Both the position numbers and the translations under genes were made by a program. A DNA stretch of 37,291 nucleotides from Verrucomicrobiaceae bacterium (lineage in GTDB: Bacteria > Verrucomicrobiota > Verrucomicrobiia > Verrucomicrobiales > Verrucomicrobiaceae), in the NCBI GenBank assembly GCA_028293175.1, contig JAQGPI010000236.1, positions 1 through 37,291 of the forward strand, in the 5' to 3' direction. The notes beneath the pieces were generated by a model. That model searched no databases. It was given only the letters and a program-made list of their open reading frames with translations, and was not told the DNA's origin. Below, in pieces: positions 2,345 to 35,469 of this stretch; position 1 is the stretch's first letter; each line of letters starts with the position of its first letter.

Positions 2345-2383
2345 GGTCATGCCATGATCGCAGGATGGGCGCAGGCCCGTCGA

Positions 2384-2468
2384 AGTAGCCGCCTTCGCAA
2401 GAAGGTGGGGGAGCGTTGGCGTGCTTCGCCGAGCCCAGGGCCGCACGCTTTTGCAAGCGCGGCTACTC
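2384..2468. repeat. Palindromic repeat, family C
   Basis: Imperfect inverted repeat. The left arm AGTAGCCGCCTTCGCAAG is at 2384-2401 and the right arm, ending CAAGCGCGGCTACT, is at about 2448-2468. They are separated by a GC-rich centre. It lies in the convergent gap between the Ig-like gene and the histidine kinase, beside a half copy of family A. No coding function is apparent. Confidence 0.6.
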
Positions 2469-2469
2469 T

Positions 2470-2499
2470 TCCGATTCGGCTGAAGCCGAAGCCACTTTC
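2470..2499. repeat. Family A palindromic repeat, half copy (A1)
   Basis: A single arm of the family A element: GATTCGGCTGAAGCCGAA followed by GCCACTTTCT. It contains the inner hairpin TTCGGCT..AGCCGAA. Its outer end runs directly into the histidine kinase stop codon (TGA read on the minus strand at 2502-2500). Confidence 0.75.
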
Positions 2500-3918
2500 T
2501 CACACCCGCGCCACCACGCCCGCCACGCCTGCTGTTTCCGCCACCCGCTCCGCCTGCCAGCGCGGCAGGGTGAGCGTAAAAGTGCAGCCCTGGCCCAGCG
2601 TGCTCTGGCAGTGCATGTTGCCGTTCATTGCCTGCGCCATGCGCTGCACGATCCACAGGCCCAGGCCGTTGGAATTTTCGCCCGCCGTTGGGCGCGGGGT
2701 GAGCTTGACGAACTTTTGAAACAGCTTGCCCTGGTCCTCGGCGCTGAGGCCGGGGCCTTCGTCCTTGATATCAATGTGTATCATGCCGTCCTGCTCACGG
2801 CAGGCGCAGCGGACATTGGTGCCGGGGGGTGAGTACTTCACGGCGTTGGACACCAAGTTGTCCAAGATCTGCTGCACCGCGCCTTCATCCGCCACGGCAA
2901 AGGCGGGCGCGGCGGCGGGGATGCGGCCAAGCGTGATGCTCTTGCGCTCAGCAGCGCGCGCGTGGTCCTTGAGAATGCCTTGCAGCAGGGTTTCCACGCT
3001 GCATCGCTCCTCTTTGAAACGCAGCGATCCTTCCTCGATGCGCTTCACCTCCAGCAGGTTGCGGATGATGTCGAGCATGCGCTTGGACAGTGACTGGATG
3101 CCCTGCGTCCATTGCAGGCGCTCGGCATCTGGGTGGTCGGGAAACATGAGCAGCAGCTCCGCATAGCCTAGCACGCCGCCGAGCGGATTGTTCAGATCGT
3201 GCGCGGCGATCTTCATGAACTCATCCTTCTCCTGGATCAGCTTGTTGAGATGCTGATTGGCCATCCCCAGTTCGGAAATGGCCAGCTCCATCTGGCGGAA
3301 CGCGCGGGCGCGGGTGCGCTCGAAGGTGAAGCCCAGCAGCGTCAGGAAACACACCAGCCCGGCGTAGCCCACGAGGTTGATAAAGTGGTGCCACTCGGGC
3401 GGGTAAGTACGCGCCACGTGCAGTCCGCGCATCTCGGCATAACCAAAGCCCAGCGCGATCACCAAGCACACGGCGGACCATGTTAGCGCGGCCTTCAAAT
3501 CCAGCAGCAGGAGGGCGCACAGCGGGATGGCCGCCAGCCAGGCGATGGCATGGCCCTCGATGCCGCCTTCCACCAGGCCGAGCGCGGTGAAGCCGGTGAC
3601 GAGGATGGCGGAGTAATAATGGCCGGTGAAGCGGAGGCTGGAGCGCTTCTTCAGAAACCAGGGGCCGAGCGTCCACAGCAGGCTGCACAGCAGGATGATG
3701 ACCGCGCCGATGGCATGCCCGATGCCCAGATAGAACAAGGCATAGAGCGTGCCGAAGGCCGCGCCCTGCGCACCGAAACGGATGTGCAGCCGGCTGCGCC
3801 GCAGCAGTTCCTCGTCATGCTTGAGGCTTTCGGGTACAAAGGAGTCGTCCAGCGTGGCGTCGCGTTTGAAGAAACGAGACGCCAGAGTCTTTTGAATGCT
3901 GGCGACGATGGAATTCAC
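2500..3918 (-). CDS. Membrane-bound sensor histidine kinase
   Basis: This is a 472-residue two-component sensor kinase that autophosphorylates on His and would pass phosphate to a response regulator not seen here. The N-terminal half has about six hydrophobic segments between residues 50 and 198, with no large periplasmic domain, so it is an integral-membrane sensor. A short coiled stretch (about 200-230) leads to the HisKA domain with H-box AAHDLNNPLGG (phospho-acceptor H240). The HATPase_c domain has an N-box at about 350-363 (ILDNLVSNAVKYS), G1 DEGPGL at about 387 and G2 NGLGLWIV at about 417. The start is a GTG. It lies 15 bases downstream of the FadL-type gene on the same strand, so the two are probably co-transcribed. 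The signal sensed is unknown. Confidence 0.9.
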   Translation of the reverse strand: MNSIVASIQKTLASRFFKRDATLDDSFVPESLKHDEELLRRSRLHIRFGAQGAAFGTLYALFYLGIGHAIGAVIILLCSLLWTLGPWFLKKRSSLRFTGHYYSAILVTGFTALGLVEGGIEGHAIAWLAAIPLCALLLLDLKAALTWSAVCLVIALGFGYAEMRGLHVARTYPPEWHHFINLVGYAGLVCFLTLLGFTFERTRARAFRQMELAISELGMANQHLNKLIQEKDEFMKIAAHDLNNPLGGVLGYAELLLMFPDHPDAERLQWTQGIQSLSKRMLDIIRNLLEVKRIEEGSLRFKEERCSVETLLQGILKDHARAAERKSITLGRIPAAAPAFAVADEGAVQQILDNLVSNAVKYSPPGTNVRCACREQDGMIHIDIKDEGPGLSAEDQGKLFQKFVKLTPRPTAGENSNGLGLWIVQRMAQAMNGNMHCQSTLGQGCTFTLTLPRWQAERVAETAGVAGVVARV

Positions 3919-5398: not shown

Positions 5399-5572
5399 GT
5401 GGCGCGGCAGCGCACCAATGTGTGGCAGGCTTTCCAGCCTGCCGGGCTTTGAGCAGCCCTGGACTTTGATTCTGGCCATCGCTGTGCTGTGGAAAGCTCA
5501 ACGCGTGGCAGCTTTCAATGCGCGCCTGCAGGCTGGAAAGCCTGCAGCACATTGGGCGGAGCCGCGCCATGC
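5399..5572. repeat. Palindromic repeat, family D (about 175 bp)
   Basis: Long imperfect inverted repeat. The left arm (5399-5446) carries GGCGCGGCAGCGCACCAATG, then TGGCAGGCTTTCCAGCCTGCC. The right arm (5523-5572) carries GCAGGCTGGAAAGCCTGCAG, then CACATTGGGCGGAGCCGCGCC. Each arm contains its own smaller hairpin (GGCTTTCCAGCC / GGCTGGAAAGCC). The right end abuts the stop codon of the winged-helix gene at 5573. It occupies most of the space between that gene and the FadL promoter. Confidence 0.75.
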
Positions 5573-6622: not shown

Positions 6623-6720
6623 AAGAAAGTGGCTGCGGCTTTAGCCGCATCAGGCAGGCATAGCACATCGCGCGCACTTTGCCCGCTCCTGATTCGGCTA
6701 AAGCCGCAACCGCTTTCTTT
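6623..6720. repeat. Family A palindromic repeat, full copy (A2)
   Basis: Two arms in inverted orientation: AAGAAAGTGGCTGCGGC..TTAGCCGCATCAGG (6623-6654) and CCTGATTCGGCTAAAGCCG..CAACCGCTTTCTTT (6688-6720), with a 33-base centre. Each arm is itself a hairpin. One end abuts the holB stop codon; the other lies just before the start of the winged-helix gene. Confidence 0.85.
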
Positions 6721-7694
6721 CACCCGAACGCCTCAATAAAGCCCACTTCCAGTGCCAGATTTTCGCTCACGTTGGTGTGCAGGTGCTGCTCCAGTTTGCG
6801 CAGCGTGCGCAGGCGCTTCGAGGCCTCATCAATAGACCAGCGATCCGCCGCCTGTTTGGTGGCGTGCGAGTACTCCAGCAGGTCGAAGAATTCAGCGCCT
6901 ACTTTGTGCCGCACGATATCGCCCATCCAGGCCAGCAAGAGGTCCAGCATGGCATCGCGCTGTTGCAAATAGGTCGCTTCGATGAGCGCCTTCATGTGCT
7001 CTTCCTTGCCCTTCAGATAGGCGGAGCTGTCGGTGGTCTTGCCGTACATCTCCTTCTCCTTTTCGAAGTCGTCTTCCGCATCGCCCTCGATGTCGTCGCG
7101 CAGCGCATCCATCACCTCCTCGAAGCCCGCTTTCAGCCCCAGCGCGATGGACATGGAGCTGCTGTTGAGCTTCGCGTGCTTCTCCAGCAGCGCGAGCAAT
7201 TTGCGCTCATGGTCGCTGTACTTGCGTGCGCCGGATTCCGGCAGCAGCGGCATCTCAATCACGCGCGAAAGGATGGTGGGCAGCAGCTCCTGCGGCTTGC
7301 CCGTGAGCAGCAATAAAACGGTGCCCGGGGGCGGCTCCTCCAGCGTCTTGAGGAAGGCGTTTTGCGCCTGGACCGTCATGCGCTCCGCATCCACGATCAC
7401 GCCGAACTTGTGGCCGCTTGGCCCGGCTTTCAGATGGATCATGCGCTCCATTTCGCGCATGGTTTCGATGGTGATGCGGCGGCTCTTGCTTTCGGGGCTG
7501 ATGATGGGGTAGCCCTGGTGCGCCCAGTCATCGAGCGAGGCGCAATTTTCGCCCGCGATGAGGTTCAGGATGCGGCTGGCGAAGTCCTCGCGGTTCGCTT
7601 CCTTCGGCCCGCTGATGAGGTAGGCGTGGGCGAGGCGGTCCAATTGGATCGCCTTCTTCATCAATTCGATTCCACGGTCAGCTTTGAAGGGCAT
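6720..7694 (-). CDS. holB: DNA polymerase III subunit delta'
   Basis: This 324-residue subunit belongs to the clamp-loader complex, which loads the beta sliding clamp. It shows the AAA+ fold of the delta'/DnaX family: HAYLISGPKEANRED at the degenerate P-loop (no GKT, as expected for the non-ATPase delta'), KFGVIVDAERMTVQAQNAFL, and the highly conserved LKTLEEPPPGTVLLLL followed by LPTILSRVIEMPL (SRC-like motif, with V for C). The four-Cys zinc module of many homologues is absent: only one Cys remains in that segment. Its start overlaps the end of tmk by 17 bases, the classic tmk-holB arrangement. Confidence 0.93.
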   Translation of the reverse strand: MPFKADRGIELMKKAIQLDRLAHAYLISGPKEANREDFASRILNLIAGENCASLDDWAHQGYPIISPESKSRRITIETMREMERMIHLKAGPSGHKFGVIVDAERMTVQAQNAFLKTLEEPPPGTVLLLLTGKPQELLPTILSRVIEMPLLPESGARKYSDHERKLLALLEKHAKLNSSSMSIALGLKAGFEEVMDALRDDIEGDAEDDFEKEKEMYGKTTDSSAYLKGKEEHMKALIEATYLQQRDAMLDLLLAWMGDIVRHKVGAEFFDLLEYSHATKQAADRWSIDEASKRLRTLRKLEQHLHTNVSENLALEVGFIEAFG

Positions 7695-8496: not shown

Positions 8497-9222
8497 ATGA
8501 CCCGCCTGCTTTTCTGTTCACTCGCCCTGGGACTCGCTTTTGTACTCTCCGGTTGTGAGGCGTTCGAATCGATCAACAAGAAGCCTAAGTTCACCGTCTC
8601 CTTCCATTCCGAGGCGAATGAGGCGGAGTCGCCGCGCAGCATTTTTCGCTATCAGATCCCTGGCCGCCCCGCGCCCTCCGTGTTCCACCGCGTGCCCGAG
8701 TTCACCCAGGAAAATGTCTCCGCCTTCCAATCCTTCCCCGCTGCCAATGGCAACGGCTATGGCATCACCCTGCGGCTGGATTTTCGCGGCACCAACAACC
8801 TCGATCTCATGACCCGCACCCATGTGGGCGAGGTGGCGCTCGCCGTGGTGAATGGCACCCCCGTGGATTTCCTGAGCATCGACCGCCCCGTATCTGATGG
8901 CACGGTGACCATTTGGGAAGGCGTCTCCGAGCCCGTGATCAAGCTCATGCAGGCCAAGTGGCCCGCCATCAACAAGCTCAAATCCATGTCCGCAGGCCAG
9001 GAAATGCTGCCCACCACGAAGGGCGAAAAACGCCGCTCCCGAGCCGCCATCGACGCCGAAAACCAGGCCGCCGACCGCGCCGCGAAGCTGGACGCCGCCA
9101 AGCCCAAGGCCGACCCCTCCGCCCCCCAGGCCCCGGACTCCCTGCCCAGCGCGCCGACCACGAACAAGATCCCGCTGGAAGGCAACACCCAGACGCAGCC
9201 GATGCCGCTGATTAAGAGGTGA
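8497..9222 (+). CDS. Hypothetical lipoprotein
   Basis: This is a 241-residue exported protein. The N terminus is a type II signal peptide (MTRLLFCSLALGLAFVLSGC) with lipobox LSGC and lipidation at C20. The mature part has a predicted beta-rich region (about 30-150), then a charged stretch and a Pro/Ala/Ser-rich low-complexity tail (about 185-225: APQAPDSLPSAPTT). I do not recognise a domain. Secretion and lipid anchoring are well supported; the role is unknown. It is followed with a 4-base gap by a broken WapI-like gene whose best Shine-Dalgarno overlaps this stop codon, suggesting the two were one operon. Confidence 0.8.
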   Translation: MTRLLFCSLALGLAFVLSGCEAFESINKKPKFTVSFHSEANEAESPRSIFRYQIPGRPAPSVFHRVPEFTQENVSAFQSFPAANGNGYGITLRLDFRGTNNLDLMTRTHVGEVALAVVNGTPVDFLSIDRPVSDGTVTIWEGVSEPVIKLMQAKWPAINKLKSMSAGQEMLPTTKGEKRRSRAAIDAENQAADRAAKLDAAKPKADPSAPQAPDSLPSAPTTNKIPLEGNTQTQPMPLIKR

Positions 9223-9226
9223 AGCA

Positions 9227-9685
9227 GTGACTGCGGCCATGGTACGGAATGCCATTTACGAACCTCTGAGGCTCGTTTCACGTGATTCGCGCTCATGGTT
9301 CGAAATCTGCCCCTGGTCGGATGACGGGGCCTTCACGGCGCTGCGTCTTTAGGCCCAGATTGATGTGGGAGGCAGCCGGTTCACCGCCTTGAACCGCTCT
9401 GTCATTCCCCTCAATCTGGCCGAGTTTCCTCCAGCCATTGACAGGTTCATCATGGATCGGAGTGTGCGTCCCAGCCTGGATGGAACAGACGATTCCTTTT
9501 TTCGTCTCACGACCCGCTCGCCGCTTCAAGTTTGCTGTCACTTCAGCATTGGAGACACCTATTGTGGCGGTCCAGGGCCACATGAAACCTATCGCCTGAC
9601 GGGCACTTTTGAGATTGATCAGGACAGGCTCCATCAGATTCACGAATACTTCCGCCGACTGGCCCTGATTCCCAGTTGGGCCTGA
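9227..9685 (+). pseudogene. WapI-like small protein gene interrupted by an in-frame TAG
   Basis: A GTG at 9227 has a well-spaced AAGAGG (9214-9219) that overlaps the upstream lipoprotein stop. From there the frame reads through MVRNAIYEPLRLVSRDSR and SWFEICPWSDDGAFTALRL to a TAG at 9350-9352. It then continues without break (AQIDVGGSRFTALNRS ... LTGTFEIDQDRLHQIHEYF) to a stop at 9685, 153 codons in all. The halves join smoothly: the pattern of a Gly/Phe strand pair, a central helix with L..F..AI..F, and a C-terminal F.IDQ..L resembles WapI-type immunity proteins and related small folds. One CAG-to-TAG change would explain the break. A shorter protein could start at GTG 9365, but it would lack the N-terminal third. 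Family assignment is tentative. Confidence 0.55.
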
Positions 9686-14285: not shown

Positions 14286-14362
14286 GAAAGTGGCTGCAGC
14301 TTCAACCGCATCAGGTAAGGCTTTATCCTGACCCTGATTCGGCTGAAACCGAAACCACTTCA
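14286..14362. repeat. Family A palindromic repeat, full copy (A3)
   Basis: Arms GAAAGTGGCTGCAGCTTCAA (14286-14305), continuing CCGCATCAGG, and CCTGATTCGGCTGAAACCG..AAACCACTT (14333-14360). It lies 28 bases after the thioredoxin-like stop codon. The stems contain several mismatches, so this is a somewhat decayed copy. Confidence 0.75.
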
Positions 14363-14370
14363 CTCAGGGC

Positions 14371-14491
14371 GCGGAGCGCAAGTAGCCCAGTTGCGCCGCA
14401 ACTGGTTTCGCTTTGCATGGTCCACAGTTGAGCCTGGAGGCCTCACAACCCGACACCAGTTGCGGCGCAACTGGGCTACTCGTTCCTCCGC
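14371..14491. repeat. Palindromic repeat, family B
   Basis: A nearly perfect inverted repeat with arms of about 36 bases: GTAGCCCAGTTGCGCCGCAA (14382-14401), flanked by GCGGAGCGCA and CTGGT, and its complement ACCAGTTGCGGCGCAACTGG (14455-14474), followed by GCTACTCGTTCCTCCGC. The centre is about 48 bases. The stem GTTGCGCCGCAAC is itself palindromic. It lies in the 438-base non-coding stretch 14258-14695. Confidence 0.8.
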
Positions 14492-14538: not shown

Positions 14539-14577
14539 ATGCCTGATCCTGATTCGGCTACAGCCGAAACCACTTTC
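14539..14577. repeat. Family A palindromic repeat, half copy (A4)
   Basis: One arm only: ATGCCTGATCCTGATTCGGC, then TACAGCCGAAACCACTTTC. It matches the right arm of copy A6 at 34177-34215, including the flanking ATGCCTGATC. The left arm is missing or decayed. Confidence 0.75.
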
Positions 14578-14578
14578 A

Positions 14579-14683
14579 ACGCAAATGGAACCGGATGAAC
14601 GCAAATCGAACCCCACCGCAAACAAGCCTCATCTTCCCTTCAAAGGTTCCCATTTGCGTTCATCCGGATCCATTTGCGGTTAA
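14579..14683. repeat. Inverted repeat, family F, copy 1
   Basis: Left arm ACGCAAATGGAACCGGATGA, then ACGCAAAT (14579-14606). Right arm ATTTGCGTTCATCCGGATCC, then ATTTGCGGTTAA (14652-14683). A second copy, with the same TCAAAGGTTC tract before its right arm, lies at 19996-20105. It fills the 3' side of the non-coding stretch before arsC. Confidence 0.75.
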
Positions 14684-14695
14684 ACAAATCATCTT

Positions 14696-19963: not shown

Positions 19964-19995
19964 CGTTGTGGCCTGAGTGGCGGAGGGGAGGCTTT

Positions 19996-20105
19996 TTCAA
20001 CCGCCAATGGACCCGGAGGCACGCCAATAAAACATCTACAAATAAGCTTTACATGCGCCTCAAAGGTTCTCATTTGCGTGCATCCGGATCCATTGGCGGT
20101 TGAAA
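19996..20105. repeat. Inverted repeat, family F, copy 2
   Basis: Left arm TTCAACCGCCAATGGACCCG, then GAGGCACGCCAAT. Right arm ATTTGCGTGCATCCGGATCC, then ATTGGCGGTTGAA. Shares its TCAAAGGTTC..CATTTGCGT.CATCCGGATCCATT core with copy 1 at 14579-14683. The remaining 210 bases up to the kinase gene contain only a short GGACC..GGTCC palindrome (20262-20275), possibly regulatory. Confidence 0.75.
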
Positions 20106-21513: not shown

Positions 21514-21607
21514 AGAAAGTGGCTTCGGCTTCAGCCGAATCAGGAGCGGGCATGGAATCTGCCATCGTGCTGATTCCCACCCCATGCGGCTAGCCGCAGC
21601 CGCTTTG
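21514..21607. repeat. Family A palindromic repeat, partly decayed copy (A5)
   Basis: The left arm AAGAAAGTGGCTTCGGCTTC..AGCCGAATCAGG (21515-21546) is well conserved. The right arm (about 21569-21607: CTGATTCCCACC..GCGGCTAGCCGCAGCCGCTTT) carries an insertion and changes. It begins 11 bases after the kinase stop codon. Confidence 0.7.
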
Positions 21608-25198: not shown

Positions 25199-25277
25199 AG
25201 GGGCGTGGCTCACGTTGCCCTCAACGTGAATCGAAAAAGGTAGCGCGCAGCGCCTGAAAATTCTCTCTAGAAGCGAA

Positions 25278-25437
25278 GAAAGGAGCGTGGACACTCCTGT
25301 CCGCAATCGAAAGGCCTGCGGCGCAGCCGCCACATTCTCAAAGAGCAGCGCAGTCACACTGCAAGCTTCGTTGAGATTCTTCGCGGCTGCGCCGCAGGAG
25401 GATGATTGCGGACAGGAGTGTCCACGCTCCTTTTTTA
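25278..25437. repeat. Large palindrome, family E, ending in T6 (possible terminator)
   Basis: The left arm begins AAAGGAGCGTGGACACTCCT, then GTCCGCAATC and CCTGCGGCGCAGCCGC (25278-25330). The right arm runs from about 25382 (GCGGCTGCGCCGCAGG, then GATTGCGGACAG and GAGTGTCCACGCTCC) to TTTTTT at 25431-25436. The arms pair over about 50 bases with few mismatches and the similarity continues inward. On the plus strand it would form a very long stem followed by six T, so it may also terminate the WD40-TIR transcript. The remaining 250 bases to the CDF gene show only a direct repeat GGATCAAACC (25603 and 25613). Confidence 0.8.
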
Positions 25438-26599: not shown

Positions 26600-26733
26600 G
26601 AGCGGCCCGGAATTAAGCACGGAACGGCGAGTGAGTCGTCGGGAAACCAGCAGGGTAGGAAGTGCGAAGGGGATCGGGGCACCCTTGTGGCTCCCTTTGC
26701 TCAATATACCAGCGCAACAAACTTCTGGTAATT

Positions 26734-29700
26734 ATGGAAAAAGCCTCTAAATTAAGGCTGAACAAACATTTAATGCCCCATAACCGACACCCTGTACCCA
26801 AGGAGCCGAGCGCTCCTGTTGCGTGCTTCCTAGCCTTCCGGCGAGGGGGCCGCGCAGTACTGGGCATGGTTGCGGGGCTGCTGGCTCTCAGTGCGCAGGC
26901 TCACAATCTGGACATGCGCACGGATTACCTGGGCTACGACAAGGCCACGCTCGATCTGTTCCAGGCGCGCGCTGCCTTGGGCCAGACCTTGATCCAGGTA
27001 GGCGATACCATCGGGCTGCTAATGAAGGCGACGCCTAATCTTGGCACGCCAACGGGCGCGGGCGGCTACTCCACCTTCTTCATCCCGGTGGGCTCGCAGT
27101 TGCAGAAAGCCGAGTACGGCCGCCTCGATGCCACCGGCGCGTTTGTTGCCTCCGCCGTGAAAGGCCAGTCCATCCTCGCCCTGGGCGATGGCGCATGGGG
27201 CTCCCGACTCACCACCGGCCTCATCGGACTGCAACTGGGCCCCAACATCAATGGCCAGACGGCGAATGCGGTGAGCAGCACCGGCCTCAACAACGGCACG
27301 ATGGTCGGCGTGTACTCCGATACCGGCATCTTCTATTCCACCGATCCCAAGACCGCCTGGCAGAGCTGGGTGAACACCGGTGGCCTGGATAACAATCAAG
27401 GCACCCCGGCAGACAACTCCGTGCTCACCAGTTCCGGCAGCGCGGTGGTCCCCTCCACCCGCTGGGATGCGGAGCAATTGCTTGCCTTTGGCGTGCTCTC
27501 CCCCACGCTCGCTTTTCTCGATCCGGCAGATGCCCGCGGCAATGCTCCGTGGGGCATGGCTAGCGCCGTCGCCGGGCCGGAAAGCGGCTACGCCTGGGCC
27601 TTCAACAAGACCTACTGGGACTCGCACGCCTCAGACCCCAGCCGCGCGAAGAACTCCATCGCCGTGGGCCCTTGGAAACGCCTCAAGTACGATGGCAGCC
27701 AGTCATCCAAGGACACGCCAGGCTTGAAGAGCACCGCCACCGGCTACTCGGCGGCAGACGCGGGCGACATCGGTTACGACCTCAGCGCGGCTCATCCTCT
27801 GCCTGAAACCAAGAGCTGGACCGACAACAGCAGCCCCAAGGCCGTGCGCATCGCCTGGGGCAATACCGAGCTTTACCGTCCCGAGTACGCGCGCATTCAG
27901 ATCAAGATCATCAAGGGCCCGGGCGAGCTCAAGTCGCCCTTCGATTCCGCCGGATTCCTGCAAGCCTATGCCGATACCTTTGGCGGCGATGCCGGCGGTG
28001 AGTACAACAACTTCGACCACCTCTGGCACTACTACAAGCCCACCACCGCCCAGCTCGCGGGCAGGCCCTTCATCTTCAAGCAAGTGTCCAAGCCGCTGGT
28101 CATGCCCAATGAAGTCTTCTCCTACAGCCTGTGGGTGATCAATTTCGGTTCTCAAACCCTCACTAACGTGCAGGTGACAGACAACCTGCCCGCCGGCGAG
28201 CAGTTCCTCAGCGCCGTGCCCGCCGCCTCCAGCGGGCCGAATCCACTGGTGTGGAATTTTGGTTCCCTGGCACCGCAGGCGATCAGGCAGATTACCGTCA
28301 ATGTGAAGGCCGTGGGCACCGGCGTGATGACCAACGTGGCCACTTCCAAGAGCGACCAGTTCCCGCCGGAGACCACCACCGACACCACCGTGGGAGCCTC
28401 CCAGGCCCTGCTGTATGCGGACAAGATGGTCACACCCACCACCGCGCAGCCGGGTGGGACCGTGAATTACACCATGATCATTTCCAATGAAGGCACCGCC
28501 TCCAGCGCCGTGCCTTTGGTGATCACGGAAAACCTGCCCTCCGGCTTCTCCTACAACGGCTTCATCTCCGCCGATATCAATGGCGCTCCCGCCGCGCCCG
28601 GGGCCATCTCCATCGCCGTGCCGAGTTCCCAGCACCCGGTGTTTACCGTCAATACCGCCATCGAGGCGCGGAAGTCCGTGGTGATTACCTTCAGGGCAAA
28701 GATCAGCGCCGTGAAGCTGCCGGGCAGCTACTGCAACAGCTACAGTTTCGCTTACAGCGGCAAGGTGAACTCCACCGGCGCGCTCGCCTGCGTGACGGTG
28801 CAGGATGTGCAGCTCGGCATCGGCAACCTGGTCTTCTTTGACGAGAATGGCGACGGCCTTGCCAATCCAGGTGAAGGCGTGCCGGGCGTGAATGTGGAGC
28901 TGTACAAGGAAGACATGACGGCGGGCGTGGATGCGCCGCTGGCCAGCACCGTCACCAATGCCAGCGGCCAGTACCTTTTCGATACGCTGGATGCCGGCAT
29001 CTATTACGTCCACATCCCGAAGACCATGTTCCAGTCCAGCGGCCCCTTGTTTGCCAAGGTGGCGGTGGCGGCCACACTCTTCGGCGATGATGACGTGGGC
29101 CAGGACGGGCTCAACAACAGCGATCCGCCCAGCGATGGCGTGGACAGCAATCTCGTCTACCTCTTCCCCGGTCAGGCACCCACGGATGACAATGGCGAGA
29201 CCGGCGTGGGCAGCGGTTCTGACAATGACAACGACGCCTCGGTGGACCTCACCGTGGACTTCGGTTTCCAGATCCCGGTGGGCATTGGCAACCTCGTGTT
29301 CGTGGATGCCAATCACAATAGCCATGCCGATCCTGGTGAAGGGGTGGGCGGTGTGACGGTGGAAATCTATGATTCCTCCGCACCCGTGAGCACGGGCCAG
29401 TACGTGTTCTCCGCCACGACCACTTCCACCGGCCACTACCTCTTCGATCACCTCAGCACCGGCGATTACTACGTGCACATTCCGGCGCTGAATTTCCAGC
29501 CCGGTCATCCGCTTTCAGGCCTGCTGTCGCTGCCGGATGTCGGCGCTGCGGTTCACTCCGATGACAACGTGGGCGAGAACGGTATCGACGCGATTTCACC
29601 CATCTACACCGGCATCACTTCCGATATGGTCCATCTGGAGCCGGGCCTCGCCCCAGTGGATGCGGGCGGCGGCTCGACCAATGGTGAAACGGGCTTCATG

Positions 29701-32700
29701 GCCAGTGAAGACAACGCCAATGACAACAAGATCGACCTAACCATCGACTTTGGTTTCACCGACAGCCCTTCGCCCGTCTGTGGCGTGGGCAATCTCGTTT
29801 TCAAGGAGGACGATGACAACTTCTTCTATGAGGACGGTGAAGGCGTGGACGGCGTGACGGTGCAGTTGTTCACCGCCTCGGTGAGCAATCCGCTTGCCAC
29901 TCCGCCACTGCGCACAGTCATCACGGCCAATGGCGGTGAGTACTACTTTGGCAACCTCCTGCCCGGCAATTACTACGTCTTCATTCCGCCTTCCAACTTC
30001 TCCGCCAGCGGCGTGCTGAAGAACAGTCTTTCCATTCCTGGCCAGGGCGGTGACGACGGGCAGGACGATGATCAGGATGAGAATGGCGATGATCCCTTTG
30101 ATCCGTCCATTTCCGGCGTGAAGTCGAACGTCTTCAACCTCGCCGTGGGCGCGGAACCAACCGGCAACACCTCGGAATTCGGCTTCAATTCCTACGTCGA
30201 TGACGGCTCCGACACCAACAACGACCTCACCATTGACTTGGGTTTCTATGAACCCGTGGGCGTGGGCAATGTGGTGTTCAAGGATCTCAACGGCAACGGC
30301 CGCTATGATGACGGTGAAGGTGTGGACGGCGTGACCTTGCAGTTGTTCACTCCAGGCCTTGATCCGCAGACGCAACTGCCGGTGGCCGCCACTGTCAGCG
30401 CCAATGGCGGCCGCTACAGCTTCACTCGCTTGCGGCCGGGCAGCTATTTCGTTTACATTCCAGGCGTGAATTTCGGCATCGGCGGCCCGCTCAACGGCCT
30501 GCTTTCCGTGGCTGATACCAACACGAGCTGGGCGGGCGATGACAACCAGGGCGAGGACGGCATCGATTCGCCCAATCCGCTTTCCAACGGCGTCTCCAGC
30601 CGCGAGTTCACCTCGCTGACCGGCGCTGCGCCTACGGATGCGACTACCGAACAAGGAGTGGGTGCGGCCGATGACAACAGCACGGAAGGGGACTTCGATG
30701 CCACCATCGACTTCGGCTTCTACGACAACAACACCCCTATCCTGGGCATTGGCAACGTGGTCTTCAACGACCTCAATCACAACGGCCACTACGAAGCTGG
30801 CGAAGGTGTGCCCGGCGTGCATGTGCGGCTCTTCCCCGCCAATGCCAATCCGCAGAGTGACACGCCCGCTTCCATCTCCATCACCGATGCGGATGGCAGC
30901 TACTTGTTAAGAACAAACGTGCCGGGCGATTACATCGTCTTCATCCCTTACACCGAGTTTGATGTGGGCGGTGCGCTGTTCGGCCTGATGTCGATTCCCA
31001 GCAACGGCACGGATGACGGCGTGGATGATAATGCCGATGAGAACGGTATTGATGCGGTGCATCCGAACATCACCGGCATTAGCTCCGCCGTCGTGCATCT
31101 CGCCCTCGGTACCGAACCCTTGGACGGCACGGCTGAAAGCGGTTTCAACGCGGACAGCGACAATGACGCTGACAGCAATTTCGACCTCACGATCGACTTC
31201 GGTTTCGACCACATTTGCCCCACCATGGTCATCAGCCCGGCGACTCTGCCCGGTGTGACCAAGGAGGAAGGCTATCCGCAAGTGCTGAGCACCACCAGCG
31301 GCTACGGCCCCTACACCTGGGAGATCACCGGCGGTGCTCCGCCGGAGGGTCTCGTACTCAGTCCTACCGGCCAGTTCCTTGGCACCGCCACGGATGTGGG
31401 CGTGTACAACTTCAGCGTGCAGGTGACGGATGCCACCGGCTGTACCGGCACGGCGAACTATCAGGTGACCGTCTCGCCCATCCCCACCGTGGGCCTGGGC
31501 AACTGCGTCTATCTGGATGTGAACCACAACGGCGTGAACGATGGCAATGAAGGCCTCGCGGATGTGGAGTTGGAGCTTTTCCGTGCTGGTCAGGACCCGC
31601 TCATCGACGGCCCGCTCGCTGAAGTGGATACCGATGCCACCGGCCGCTACAGCTTTGAAGGGCTCACCCCCGGCGATTACTTCCTCTACATCCCGCCCAC
31701 CGAATTCGCCGTCGGCAGGCCGCTCTATGGCTGCCTCTCCGTGCCCGGTGCCGCTGCTGACAACGGCGTTGATGACAACCTGCCGGGCAATGACAATGGC
31801 ATCGACAACGCTCAACCGGAACTTAACGGCCTCTTCTCCAATGCCATGCATCTGGCACTCGGCACCGAGCCCACGGACGGCTCCACGGAAACCGGTTTTG
31901 ACGTCACGCATGACAATGCCAATGGCAACGATTCGAACTTCGATGCCACCATTGATTTCGGCTTCCAGGCCTCCTGCCCCACCATGGTCGTCACTCCCTC
32001 CACGCTGCCCTCGGCCACGGAAGGCAACGCTTACAACCAGGCGCTCCAGGCCACCGGCGGCGTGGCCCCGGTCACCTTCTCCGTCACCAACGGCATCCTG
32101 CCTTCCGGCATCTCCGTTTCCACCCTGGGAGTGATCGCCGGCACACCGGAAAACCAGGGCGCGTACGCCTTCACCATCCGCGCCACCGATGCCAATGGCT
32201 GCTCCACCGATGTGCCCTCATCGCTCGTTGTCGGGGCCCGGCTCGCGGTCGGTAACCTGGTCTTCTTTGATGCCAATGCCAACGGCCACGCCGATGCGGG
32301 CGAAGGCATCGACGGCGTCACCGTGCAACTCTACCGCAGCACTGATACGCCCGGCACCAGCACGCCGCTGGCCACCGCCACCACGGCGAATGGCGGCCGC
32401 TACCTGATCGATGGACTCGGCTCAGGGCAGTACATCCTGTTCATCCCCAAGGCCATGTTCGCCACGGGTGCACCGCTGGTTAACATGAAGTCCGTGCCCG
32501 GTGCCATGAGCTCGGGTGATGATAACGCCGGGGAGCGCGGTGTGGACAATGCGGTGCCCGCGACCAATGGCATCGCCACGGCTGTCTTCAGCCTCGCCAC
32601 CGGCAGCGCTCCGACCATTGACGACAGTGAAACCGGCACCGATGAAGCCAGCGATGATGCCCGTGATTCCGACATCGATCTCACTCAGGACTTCGGCTTT

Positions 32701-34134
32701 GTGGATGTGAATGCACGGCCCGCCACCTTCACCGCCTGGGCCGGTATCAAAGGCCTCTCCGGCGGCAACGCCCAGCCCACGGCGAATCCGGACGGCGATG
32801 CGTATAACAACCTGATCGAATACTCCCTGGGCCTCAGCCCCACCAGCGGGGCGGATGACATCGGCGCGGTGTTCAGTGTGATACACAATGTGAGCGGTGG
32901 TGTGGACGTGCGCCTGCGCCGCCGTCACGGCAGCCAGGCTGATCTGACCTACACCATCGAGCTGCTGCCGAAGCTGCTCAACGCCACCTGGAGCACGACT
33001 TCCACCTCGCCCTCGATCACCAATAACGCCGACGGCAGCGAGACGCTCAACTTCGCCAGCATCAGCAATGATCTCGCGCTGGCAGGCGGTACTGATGGCT
33101 TTGTGCGCATCCGCGTTTCGCTTGATGCCAATCACGACACCATTGCCGAAGCCACCGCCACCTCCATCATCCTGGGCTGGCAGCGCCGCGCGCTCGGCTT
33201 GCAAAACCAGACCTATGCCGTGCCCTATGCCGCCACCGCTGTCTTCACCGGCACGATCGGCACCGTCACCGGCAACACCATCGACCTCACCGCTGCTGCT
33301 GGCGGCACTAACCTAACAACTCTCTTCGTTACCGGTAAGGAGTACTACATCGAGGCCATGAACGGCACCCAGCAGGGCCACCGCTGGGAGATCAGCGAAG
33401 CCTCCAGCACCGCCACCACTCTTGTGCTTGATCCCACACAGGCCCGCAGCACCCGCACCACCGTTCCCGCCAGCCTCGCGGGCACCCTCGTCGCCCTGCG
33501 CCGCCACTGGTGCGTATCCGATCTCTTCCCGCCCGCCGACTATCACGCCACCAACAGCGCCACCACCGCCGACCAAGTGCTCCTCTGGGACCCTGCCACC
33601 AGCGGCTACGTCACTCTTTGGCTGGCCAATTACTTCGGCCAGTCGCACTGGCATCAGGTCGGCGTCGCCGCACTCAATACCACCGAAGACAACCGCGTTC
33701 TCACGCCCGTGGACGGCTTCTTTGCCCGGCCCCGCGTCGGTGCCGTCACTGCCTTTGCCACCGGCCAGTTGCGCACCTGGCAGTTCGCCATGCCCTTGCA
33801 ACTCGGCACCAATTTTGTCGGCAATCCCTTTCCCATTGCGCAGAGTCCGGTCGAGCGCGTGATGACCACCGCCAACACCTTCACCGGCAAGACCAATCCC
33901 GGGCTGTCTGACCGCATCTACTTCTGGAACGGCGATACCGACAGCACCGCCACTGGCTACACCACTTACCATCTGCTGAAGTCCAGCACCCTGGAGATTT
34001 GGAAGGTCGTCGGCAGCACCGATCTGAGCACCAATCTGGGCCTGCAAAAGCTCTTCCTCAACGCCCGCGCCGGCTTCATCAACAGCATCATCGGCCAGCC
34101 TGATTGGATGATCCCGGCTCCTGCGGTGCCGTAG
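26734..34134 (+). CDS. Giant secreted SdrD_B-like repeat surface protein (2466 residues)
   Basis: The ATG at 26734 gives a long signal peptide (hydrophobic core VLGMVAGLLALSAQA); other nearby starts are possible. Residues to about 445 are unassigned and include several Trp and Tyr. Two DUF11-like modules (about 448-540 and 560-690; VTDNLPAG, ITENLPSG) follow. Seven SdrD_B-like Ca-binding units begin near residues 695, 850, 1016, 1175, 1337, 1586 and 1838, each opening with G.GN.VF.D.N.NG....GEGV.GV and ending in DLTIDFGF. Each full unit is about 160 residues because a second acidic half (DDN.GENGID) is added. He_PIG-type modules sit at about 1493-1583 and 1748-1832. An NPDGDAYNNLIEYSLGLSP motif (about 2013) precedes the 450-residue tail. 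Adhesion or surface-layer function is inferred. The stop codon abuts family A copy A6. Confidence 0.9.
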   Translation: MEKASKLRLNKHLMPHNRHPVPKEPSAPVACFLAFRRGGRAVLGMVAGLLALSAQAHNLDMRTDYLGYDKATLDLFQARAALGQTLIQVGDTIGLLMKATPNLGTPTGAGGYSTFFIPVGSQLQKAEYGRLDATGAFVASAVKGQSILALGDGAWGSRLTTGLIGLQLGPNINGQTANAVSSTGLNNGTMVGVYSDTGIFYSTDPKTAWQSWVNTGGLDNNQGTPADNSVLTSSGSAVVPSTRWDAEQLLAFGVLSPTLAFLDPADARGNAPWGMASAVAGPESGYAWAFNKTYWDSHASDPSRAKNSIAVGPWKRLKYDGSQSSKDTPGLKSTATGYSAADAGDIGYDLSAAHPLPETKSWTDNSSPKAVRIAWGNTELYRPEYARIQIKIIKGPGELKSPFDSAGFLQAYADTFGGDAGGEYNNFDHLWHYYKPTTAQLAGRPFIFKQVSKPLVMPNEVFSYSLWVINFGSQTLTNVQVTDNLPAGEQFLSAVPAASSGPNPLVWNFGSLAPQAIRQITVNVKAVGTGVMTNVATSKSDQFPPETTTDTTVGASQALLYADKMVTPTTAQPGGTVNYTMIISNEGTASSAVPLVITENLPSGFSYNGFISADINGAPAAPGAISIAVPSSQHPVFTVNTAIEARKSVVITFRAKISAVKLPGSYCNSYSFAYSGKVNSTGALACVTVQDVQLGIGNLVFFDENGDGLANPGEGVPGVNVELYKEDMTAGVDAPLASTVTNASGQYLFDTLDAGIYYVHIPKTMFQSSGPLFAKVAVAATLFGDDDVGQDGLNNSDPPSDGVDSNLVYLFPGQAPTDDNGETGVGSGSDNDNDASVDLTVDFGFQIPVGIGNLVFVDANHNSHADPGEGVGGVTVEIYDSSAPVSTGQYVFSATTTSTGHYLFDHLSTGDYYVHIPALNFQPGHPLSGLLSLPDVGAAVHSDDNVGENGIDAISPIYTGITSDMVHLEPGLAPVDAGGGSTNGETGFMASEDNANDNKIDLTIDFGFTDSPSPVCGVGNLVFKEDDDNFFYEDGEGVDGVTVQLFTASVSNPLATPPLRTVITANGGEYYFGNLLPGNYYVFIPPSNFSASGVLKNSLSIPGQGGDDGQDDDQDENGDDPFDPSISGVKSNVFNLAVGAEPTGNTSEFGFNSYVDDGSDTNNDLTIDLGFYEPVGVGNVVFKDLNGNGRYDDGEGVDGVTLQLFTPGLDPQTQLPVAATVSANGGRYSFTRLRPGSYFVYIPGVNFGIGGPLNGLLSVADTNTSWAGDDNQGEDGIDSPNPLSNGVSSREFTSLTGAAPTDATTEQGVGAADDNSTEGDFDATIDFGFYDNNTPILGIGNVVFNDLNHNGHYEAGEGVPGVHVRLFPANANPQSDTPASISITDADGSYLLRTNVPGDYIVFIPYTEFDVGGALFGLMSIPSNGTDDGVDDNADENGIDAVHPNITGISSAVVHLALGTEPLDGTAESGFNADSDNDADSNFDLTIDFGFDHICPTMVISPATLPGVTKEEGYPQVLSTTSGYGPYTWEITGGAPPEGLVLSPTGQFLGTATDVGVYNFSVQVTDATGCTGTANYQVTVSPIPTVGLGNCVYLDVNHNGVNDGNEGLADVELELFRAGQDPLIDGPLAEVDTDATGRYSFEGLTPGDYFLYIPPTEFAVGRPLYGCLSVPGAAADNGVDDNLPGNDNGIDNAQPELNGLFSNAMHLALGTEPTDGSTETGFDVTHDNANGNDSNFDATIDFGFQASCPTMVVTPSTLPSATEGNAYNQALQATGGVAPVTFSVTNGILPSGISVSTLGVIAGTPENQGAYAFTIRATDANGCSTDVPSSLVVGARLAVGNLVFFDANANGHADAGEGIDGVTVQLYRSTDTPGTSTPLATATTANGGRYLIDGLGSGQYILFIPKAMFATGAPLVNMKSVPGAMSSGDDNAGERGVDNAVPATNGIATAVFSLATGSAPTIDDSETGTDEASDDARDSDIDLTQDFGFVDVNARPATFTAWAGIKGLSGGNAQPTANPDGDAYNNLIEYSLGLSPTSGADDIGAVFSVIHNVSGGVDVRLRRRHGSQADLTYTIELLPKLLNATWSTTSTSPSITNNADGSETLNFASISNDLALAGGTDGFVRIRVSLDANHDTIAEATATSIILGWQRRALGLQNQTYAVPYAATAVFTGTIGTVTGNTIDLTAAAGGTNLTTLFVTGKEYYIEAMNGTQQGHRWEISEASSTATTLVLDPTQARSTRTTVPASLAGTLVALRRHWCVSDLFPPADYHATNSATTADQVLLWDPATSGYVTLWLANYFGQSHWHQVGVAALNTTEDNRVLTPVDGFFARPRVGAVTAFATGQLRTWQFAMPLQLGTNFVGNPFPIAQSPVERVMTTANTFTGKTNPGLSDRIYFWNGDTDSTATGYTTYHLLKSSTLEIWKVVGSTDLSTNLGLQKLFLNARAGFINSIIGQPDWMIPAPAVP

Positions 34135-34215
34135 AAAGAAAGTGGCTGCGGCTTTAGCCGCATCAGGCAAGGCTCCATGCCTGATCCTGATTCGGCTAAA
34201 GCCGAAACCACTTTC
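34135..34215. repeat. Family A palindromic repeat, full copy exactly between two stop codons (A6)
   Basis: Best-preserved copy: AAAGAAAGTGGCTGCGGCTT, then TAGCCGCATCAGG on the left, and CCTGATTCGGCTAAAGCCGA, then AACCACTTTC on the right, with a short ATGCCTGATC-containing centre. It occupies every base between the TAG of the SdrD_B-like gene (34132-34134) and the TGA of the exporter (34218-34216, minus strand). It may act as a bidirectional terminator. Confidence 0.9.
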
Positions 34216-35469
34216 TCAATGATGATGCCCGCCGGAAGCCAAGGCCGACCATCCCTGCCAGCCCATGAACACTGCCAGCACGGCCATCAGAGCGCATGAG
34301 ACATAGGGCGCGCGGCGCAGCTTGTCGCCGAGGCCGCTGAACCTCTTCTGCGCGTGCCCCAGGCTCCAGGCGGCGGCGGCACCGACCGACACCATGGTGA
34401 GCGCGAGGCCGAAGCTGAAGGCTCCCACGACGGCGAAGCCCAGGGCGGCGCGCTTCAGTTGCAAACACAGCAGCAGGATGGTGAAGGCGGCGGGGCAGGG
34501 CATCAGCCCGCCTGTGATACCAAATAGGACGATTTGGGATGTCGTCACCGTGCGGTTGGTGAAGCGCCGGGCGATGTCTTCGGCGTGGTAGCGCTCGTGC
34601 GCATCCTGGTACTCCACGGATGCCGCGGCGGCCGCGACTTCCGCCGTTTCCACGGGCTTGGGCACCTGGGCTTCATCGCCGAAGGGAACCCGGAACACAT
34701 GCGCGTGATCGGCATGGCCCATGGTGACGACGGCGAGGAAATGATGCGGCTCGGGCAGGATGGCGGTGGCCTCCCAAAAGGTGTCGCGGGCCTCGAATTG
34801 AAAGAGCTGGCTGGCACCGTCGAGACGCACCGTTTCAATGGTGAGGCGGGTGCGTTTCGCGAGCGACGTGGGCGTTCCGCCGGCGGTGCACGGGAAGATG
34901 CGGAACCGCGCATCGCCTTCCTTGGCCACGGCGATTTCCAGCCAGCCGTGACCGGTATCCAGCAAGGTGCCGCCATGCGGACCTCGCGGAGGCCCAGCGG
35001 CTTTGCGGGCGAAACGGGCAGGCACGATGAGGCCCTGCGGCAGCTCGATCTCATGCATGGTCGCATCGGAGGGCGGCGCTGCGGGCTCATCGTGGGAATG
35101 ATGCTCGTGATGATGGTCTTCGGCCTCGCGCACCTCGCGGCGCGTGCGCATGAACATCCATGCGGACAGCCCCAGGATCAGCACGGCGGACCCGATTTGC
35201 AGATAAGGCTCCACCGTTTCCGCATCGAACCGGTTGCCATAATGCAGGGCCACGGCGGCGAGAATCCAGATGATAAGCGAGTGCGAGAGCGCGGCGGACA
35301 AACCCAGCAGCACGGCCTGCGCCACGGTCCCGCGCACGGCGATGATGAAGGCGGCCATCATGGTCTTCGAATGCCCCGGCTCCAGCCCATGCAGCGCGCC
35401 TACCAGGATGGCAACGGGCACATAAAGCCAGGCGTGGCCGCTGTCGAGGTACTGGGTGAAGGAGGTCAT
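34216..35469 (-). CDS. RcnA/NicO-type nickel-cobalt exporter with a large inserted loop domain
   Basis: This 417-residue inner-membrane protein belongs to the NicO/RcnA family. Diagnostic motifs are HGLEPGHSKT (27-36) and GITGGLMPCPAAFTILLL (317-334). Three hydrophobic segments precede a long loop and at least three follow. The loop (about 112-300) is much longer than in E. coli RcnA. It opens with a His-rich EDHHHEHHSHDE, then has a beta-rich part (about 160-262: GPHGGTLLDTGHGWLEIAV, then LPEPHHFLAVVTMGHADHAH) and ends with HERYHAEDIARRF. The C terminus is GGHHH. Ni/Co efflux is likely; the inserted domain may bind metal. It is divergent from recG. Confidence 0.86.
   Translation of the reverse strand: MTSFTQYLDSGHAWLYVPVAILVGALHGLEPGHSKTMMAAFIIAVRGTVAQAVLLGLSAALSHSLIIWILAAVALHYGNRFDAETVEPYLQIGSAVLILGLSAWMFMRTRREVREAEDHHHEHHSHDEPAAPPSDATMHEIELPQGLIVPARFARKAAGPPRGPHGGTLLDTGHGWLEIAVAKEGDARFRIFPCTAGGTPTSLAKRTRLTIETVRLDGASQLFQFEARDTFWEATAILPEPHHFLAVVTMGHADHAHVFRVPFGDEAQVPKPVETAEVAAAAASVEYQDAHERYHAEDIARRFTNRTVTTSQIVLFGITGGLMPCPAAFTILLLCLQLKRAALGFAVVGAFSFGLALTMVSVGAAAAWSLGHAQKRFSGLGDKLRRAPYVSCALMAVLAVFMGWQGWSALASGGHHH

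What the first reader, a model, noticed from the sequence alone, without database searches (positions are those of the whole stretch)
34135..34215. A palindromic repeat fills the whole gap between two convergent stop codons
Copy A6 starts at the base after one stop and ends at the base before the other. Such precision suggests either a mobile element with a preference for gene ends or a co-opted bidirectional terminator shared by the giant surface protein and the exporter.
Basis: seen in the sequence. Interest (0 to 1): 0.55.

Follow-up and report, generated by a model that had tools for sequence, protein, structure and literature searches.

The report
REPIN between two convergent genes
The palindrome that fills the gap between these two genes is one copy of a small mobile DNA repeat (a REPIN: a back-to-back pair of REP hairpins) that occurs all over this uncultured Verrucomicrobiaceae genome, together with the gene for its probable mobilising enzyme; it is an ordinary member of a known kind, not a purpose-built shared terminator.

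Summary
The gap 34135-34215 between the stop of the 2490-codon SdrD_B-repeat gene and the stop of a NicO/RcnA-type exporter gene holds little but an 80-nt palindrome (34137-34216); its last conserved base is the final A of the exporter's TGA. It is a REPIN: two inverted REPs, each headed GTGG and each carrying its own perfect hairpin. A strict half-site pattern hits 55 times in the genome against 0 for the reversed pattern. A RAYT-like transposase gene on another contig has a doublet on each side; a 67-69% identical relative in another genus also sits among the same REPs. Each single-REP hairpin is kept intact, while the cross-arm pairing of a long terminator stem is broken at two fixed columns in 14-15 of 17 doublets: this fits an element recognised through its REP hairpins better than a selected terminator. 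Doublets abut stop codons more often than a uniform null gives (6 of 11 vs 2.05 expected) but are not enriched in convergent gaps. REPs next to stops, even supplying the stop, are published. Terminator or mRNA-end roles remain untested. New member of a known kind; low interest.

The parts
34137..34216 (.). REPIN (copy A6): two inverted REPs with an 18-nt spacer; fills the gap between the two stop codons
34137..34167 (+). left REP, G/C type: AGAAAGTGG head, hairpin TGCGGCTTTAGCCGCA, tail TCAGG
34168..34185 (.). spacer between the two REPs
34186..34216 (-). right REP in inverted orientation, T/A type: hairpin TTCGGCTTTAGCCGAA; its outer base is the last base of the exporter's TGA stop
26662..34134 (+). 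giant SdrD_B/DUF11-type surface-protein gene that ends at the left edge (longest frame; the coding score prefers a start at 26866)
34216..35469 (-). nickel/cobalt exporter gene (NicO family, RcnA-like) that ends at the right edge
6624..6718 (.). another doublet of the same family, 2 nt from the stop of the gene 6720-7694 (-)
14286..14362 (.). another, partly decayed doublet of the family
14548..14577 (-). single REP of the family
21514..21607 (.). doublet with a degenerate right half
2470..2500 (-). single REP directly next to a GTAG-family doublet (2383-2468); abuts the stop of the gene 2500-3918 (-)

Best explanation
The sequence between the two stops is a REPIN: two REPs in inverted orientation, each a hairpin with a GTGG head, making a small non-autonomous mobile unit. 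Shown here: the dispersed family, the doublet anatomy, the conservation of each half hairpin, and a RAYT-like gene with family doublets on both sides. Inferred from published RAYT work: the RAYT (a HuH/Y1 enzyme) recognises the REP hairpins in single-stranded DNA and copied the unit here. At this site it lies just after two pre-existing stop codons because such a position damages neither protein; the last base of one stop now belongs to the element's edge. Any effect on termination or mRNA 3' ends would be a by-product of a very stable hairpin at both transcript ends.
For: 55 half sites in the genome with 0 in the reversed control. Copies are head-outward doublets of 76-96 nt or singlets with unrelated flanks. 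GTGG head plus a perfect 16-nt palindrome per half; intra-half pairing 95% here and 100% in relatives, while cross-arm pairing is broken at columns 10 and 23 in 14 and 15 of 17 doublets. RAYT-like gene L091:8586-9263 flanked by doublets 8530-8624 and 9284-9379, Pfam Y1_Tnp over its cut-off, best NCBIfam model REP_Tyr_transpos at 71.9 bits (cut-off 80). The 67-69% identical RAYT of G047 lies among the same REPs. Exporter relatives and a 60% identical paralogue of the giant gene end at nearly the same residue with no repeat after the stop. GT[AG]G heads, REPtrons, downstream location and stop-supplying ends are published (PMC3733652, PMC6006769).
Against: The RAYT is under the NCBIfam cut-off and has HRH where the other aligned homologues have a non-charged middle residue, so this allele may be impaired. 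No empty site in a close relative was available, so the insertion event at A6 is inferred. The cognate link RAYT-REP rests on proximity in two genomes; the next nearest RAYT relatives (47-55% identity) show no GT[AG]G hairpin nearby with the rule used.
Confidence: 0.93

Rival explanations
1. It is a REPIN by origin but is kept here because it works as a shared bidirectional terminator or 3'-end stabiliser for the two convergent mRNAs.
For: Very stable hairpin on both strands directly after both stops; the - strand transcript continues CCACUUUCUUUCU, a weak U-rich tail; REPs are proposed to act on transcripts (PMC3733652).
Against: No terminator-like site in the scan, no true U-run; cross-arm pairs are broken at two fixed columns in most doublets; no enrichment in convergent gaps; hairpin and tail are features of every copy.
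Confidence: 0.2
2. The RAYT system targets sites at stop codons, so that insertion itself is directed to gene ends.
For: 6 of 11 testable doublets lie within 3 nt of a facing stop, 2.05 expected; several junctions read TGA or TAG next to GAAAG.
Against: No shared target sequence in the flanks listed; singlets show no excess; selection against gene damage, and stops formed at the junction, explain the same pattern; small sample and home-made gene calls.
Confidence: 0.08
3. It is a plain intrinsic terminator of the gene pair that merely resembles the repeats.
For: Hairpin between convergent genes.
Against: 98-100% identity of its halves to other dispersed copies, including the spacer-side tail; copies inside, before and after genes.
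Confidence: 0.01

Closest known systems
REPINs (REP doublets forming hairpins) of Pseudomonas fluorescens SBW25, PMC3116915
   Same: Two inverted REPs with a spacer as the unit, singlets as probable remnants, mostly extragenic, a RAYT gene in the genome
   Different: Sequence unrelated; about 55-65 half sites here against more than a thousand; units have one G/C-type and one T/A-type REP
GTAG REP super-family and REPtrons, PMC3733652 (Opitutus terrae of Verrucomicrobia, GTAG-20 elements with GTGG heads)
   Same: GTGG/GTAG head, hairpin, dimers, location downstream of genes, ends that supply stop codons, RAYT flanked by repeats
   Different: Different stem sequence and another verrucomicrobial family; direct sequence comparison with GTAG-20 not made
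BIMEs of Escherichia coli (from my own knowledge)
   Same: Paired inverted REPs of two slightly different types (like Y and Z), mosaics with other motifs
   Different: Sequence and host unrelated; protein-binding properties of BIMEs not tested here

Membership tests
REPIN / REP family | Dispersed short palindromes in many extragenic copies in one genome | tested here: met
   55 pattern hits, control 0; 36 of 40 placed elements outside called genes
REPIN / REP family | GT[AG]G tetranucleotide at the 5' foot of each hairpin | tested here: met
   GTGG directly before the hairpin in nearly all halves; rule from PMC6006769
REPIN / REP family | Two REPs in inverted orientation with a spacer as the unit | tested here: met
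   17 head-outward doublets found by rule in this genome, 7 in relatives
REPIN / REP family | Cognate RAYT gene flanked by the same REPs (REPtron) | tested here: met
   L091:8586-9263 between doublets; same arrangement in G047
REPIN / REP family | RAYT cuts the REP in single-stranded DNA and mobilises it | not testable with these tools
   Needs biochemistry or mutation accumulation
RAYT (TnpA-REP) | Y1_Tnp domain with HuH motif and catalytic Tyr | tested here: inconclusive
   Pfam Y1_Tnp over cut-off, NCBIfam REP_Tyr_transpos under cut-off; Tyr kept, HuH reads HRH
Intrinsic terminator | G+C-rich hairpin followed by a run of U | tested here: not met
   Scan negative; hairpin present but tail is UCAAUG on + and UUUCUACG on -
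Known Rfam RNA family | Match at gathering score | tested here: not met
   0 matches in the window

The most novel reading that the evidence does not exclude
The unit has two defined, unequal ends (one G/C-type and one T/A-type REP, kept across genera), like the left and right ends of IS200/IS605 elements, and this genome also carries chimeric units in which a GTGG REP is fused to a GTAG doublet, so that RAYTs of different families may mobilise shared composite elements.
Probability: 0.2. Interest if true: 0.4.

Novelty: new member of a known kind. Interest (0 to 1): 0.18.

Why it matters
It settles a suggestive coincidence: the stop-to-stop fit is what a small, tolerated mobile repeat looks like, not a purpose-built terminator. 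It adds a GTGG REPIN/RAYT pair in Verrucomicrobiaceae, with several sister RAYTs in the same family flanked by their own GT[AG]G REPs, a usable set for comparing RAYT specificity.

Tried and rejected
Rfam gave no match. The promoter/terminator scan gave nothing. Looking for the same convergent pair in relatives failed: exporters in five genomes and eleven named contigs show no such repeat after the stop, and no homologue of the giant gene's C-terminus was found near them. A stop created by truncation of the exporter was considered and set aside, because relatives end at nearly the same residue. One protein search failed for wrong frame and was rerun; one alignment failed and was replaced by a script. 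Papers on REPs with trans-translation or Rho in the open library gave nothing of direct use.

Full report
Observation. The + strand gene ends with TAG at 34132-34134 and the - strand gene ends with TGA at 34218-34216, leaving 81 nt. These 81 nt fold into one hairpin on either strand with z-scores near -10. The family edge is AGAAAGTGG...CCACTTTCT, 34137-34216, so two bases lie outside it on the left, and on the right its outer base is the last base of the TGA.

What it is. The window is contig C363 of a 5.4-Mb, 680-contig genome. The nearest kin found through the exporter protein are Verrucomicrobia, the best named one being a Prosthecobacter sp. MAG, so the host is probably an uncultured member of Verrucomicrobiaceae. 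A strict half-site pattern, up to 3 mismatches in 30, finds 55 places in this genome and none for the reversed pattern. In 56 related genomes the same pattern finds at most 9 in any one genome and none outside the family. Copies occur as head-outward doublets of 76-96 nt or as singlets.

Anatomy and what is conserved. Each half reads GAAAGTGG, then C or T, then a 16-nt palindrome in two versions: TTCGGCTTTAGCCGAA or TGCGGCTTTAGCCGCA. Of 65 half sites, 59 keep T-A or G-C at the variable pair. Of 17 doublets, 12 join one G/C-type and one T/A-type half, one joins two T/A halves and four have a mutated half; in relatives 6 of 7 are G/C with T/A. Because the two halves differ, the cross-arm helix is broken at columns 10 and 23 in 14 and 15 of 17 doublets, while the half hairpins are 95% paired (100% in relatives). 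This says the single REP hairpin is what has been preserved. It fits recognition of each end as DNA and does not fit selection for one long terminator stem. A caution: copies are related to each other, so this is a pattern, not a count of independent events.

The enzyme. Contig C527 carries a Y1 transposase gene (L091:8586-9263) with a doublet before it (8530-8624, overlapping the first codons of the open frame) and one 20 nt after it (9284-9379). It is over the Pfam cut-off for Y1_Tnp and its best NCBIfam model is the REP-associated tyrosine transposase, though under that model's cut-off. A 67-69% identical protein in G047 (another genus) lies among the same REPs, and the open frame again runs through a REP at its 5' end. 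Many other RAYTs in the family are flanked by other GT[AG]G hairpins; the one on C372 of this genome is flanked by GTAGCCCAGTTGCGCCGCAACTGG, a family also present at 14380-14480 in the window.

Why it fits between the stops. Both protein ends look native: relatives of the exporter end at nearly the same residue with unrelated sequence after the stop, and a 60% identical paralogue of the giant protein ends with the same motif, followed by unrelated sequence. Over the genes called here, doublets lie within 3 nt of a facing stop in 6 of 11 testable cases against 2.05 expected if placed uniformly in their gaps (P about 0.0009; A6 itself contributes 1 to both, so 5 of 10 vs 1.05 without it). Singlets show no such excess, and convergent gaps are not over-used. 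PMC3733652 reports that REPs lie mostly downstream of coding regions, between unidirectional and convergent genes, and that their ends often provide a stop codon. The simplest reading is insertion, or survival, where no protein is harmed. No empty site was available, so the insertion event itself is inferred.

Function. Shown: a dispersed REPIN family with a linked RAYT-like gene. Inferred from published work on RAYTs (PMC6006769, PMC8266576, PMC3116915): copying by the RAYT through single-stranded REP hairpins. Not shown: any role in termination or mRNA stability. There is no U-run and the scan found no intrinsic terminator, though its settings could not see a hairpin of this size. A stable hairpin at both 3' ends may still affect transcripts; only transcript mapping would tell.

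Verdict. A new sequence family of a known kind of element, in a phylum where such repeats are already reported (Opitutus terrae, PMC3733652). Interest is low; the recurring chimeric units (see Noticed in passing) are the part that might repay more work.

Noticed in passing
window 2383-2500; also G000 C74:17347-17462, C332:13336-13391, C432:10302-10416, C514:560-673 and 2004-2120, C592:6831-6940: Composite repeats: a single GTGG REP (always the T/A type) is joined, with 0-3 nt between, to the tail side of a GTAG-headed REP doublet (AAGTAGCCGCGCTCGCAAGAGCGTGG...CCACCTTCTTGCGAAGGCGGCTACTT). Host flanks differ, so the chimera may move as one unit.
   Followed up: partly
L085:12270-12386, L287:1322-1480: The same GTAG repeat is also joined to a third GTGG-headed repeat (GAAAGTGGCAGGGCGTCCCGCCCCTTTGAGG), again with the junction GG/AAGTAGC.
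   Followed up: no
L091:8586-9263: The RAYT-like protein next to this repeat family has H-R-H in place of the HuH motif; no other aligned homologue has a charged residue there. It may be a damaged allele or an assembly error.
   Followed up: no
L091:8586-8624 and L274:1507-1540: In two genera the RAYT open frame runs through the upstream REP (peptide SAKAEATFFRP), so the repeat overlaps the 5' end of its own enzyme's gene, a possible feedback control.
   Followed up: no
window 14380-14480; L116 (C372): A second REP family (GTAGCCCAGTTGCGCCGCAACTGG) present in the window flanks a different RAYT on contig C372.
   Followed up: partly
window 5415-5555, 14574-14684, 19995-20105, 25276-25436: Further long inverted repeats of other sequence families in intergenic DNA.
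   Followed up: no
L284 (C9), about 2514-2601: A homologue of the giant protein on contig C9 is followed, about 30 nt after its stop, by a GTAG-family doublet.
   Followed up: no
L276:1190-1254 and L277:1164-1228: Two species of another genus (G016, G008) carry a doublet of this family with similar flanking sequence, so some copies seem to be inherited at the same place.
   Followed up: no
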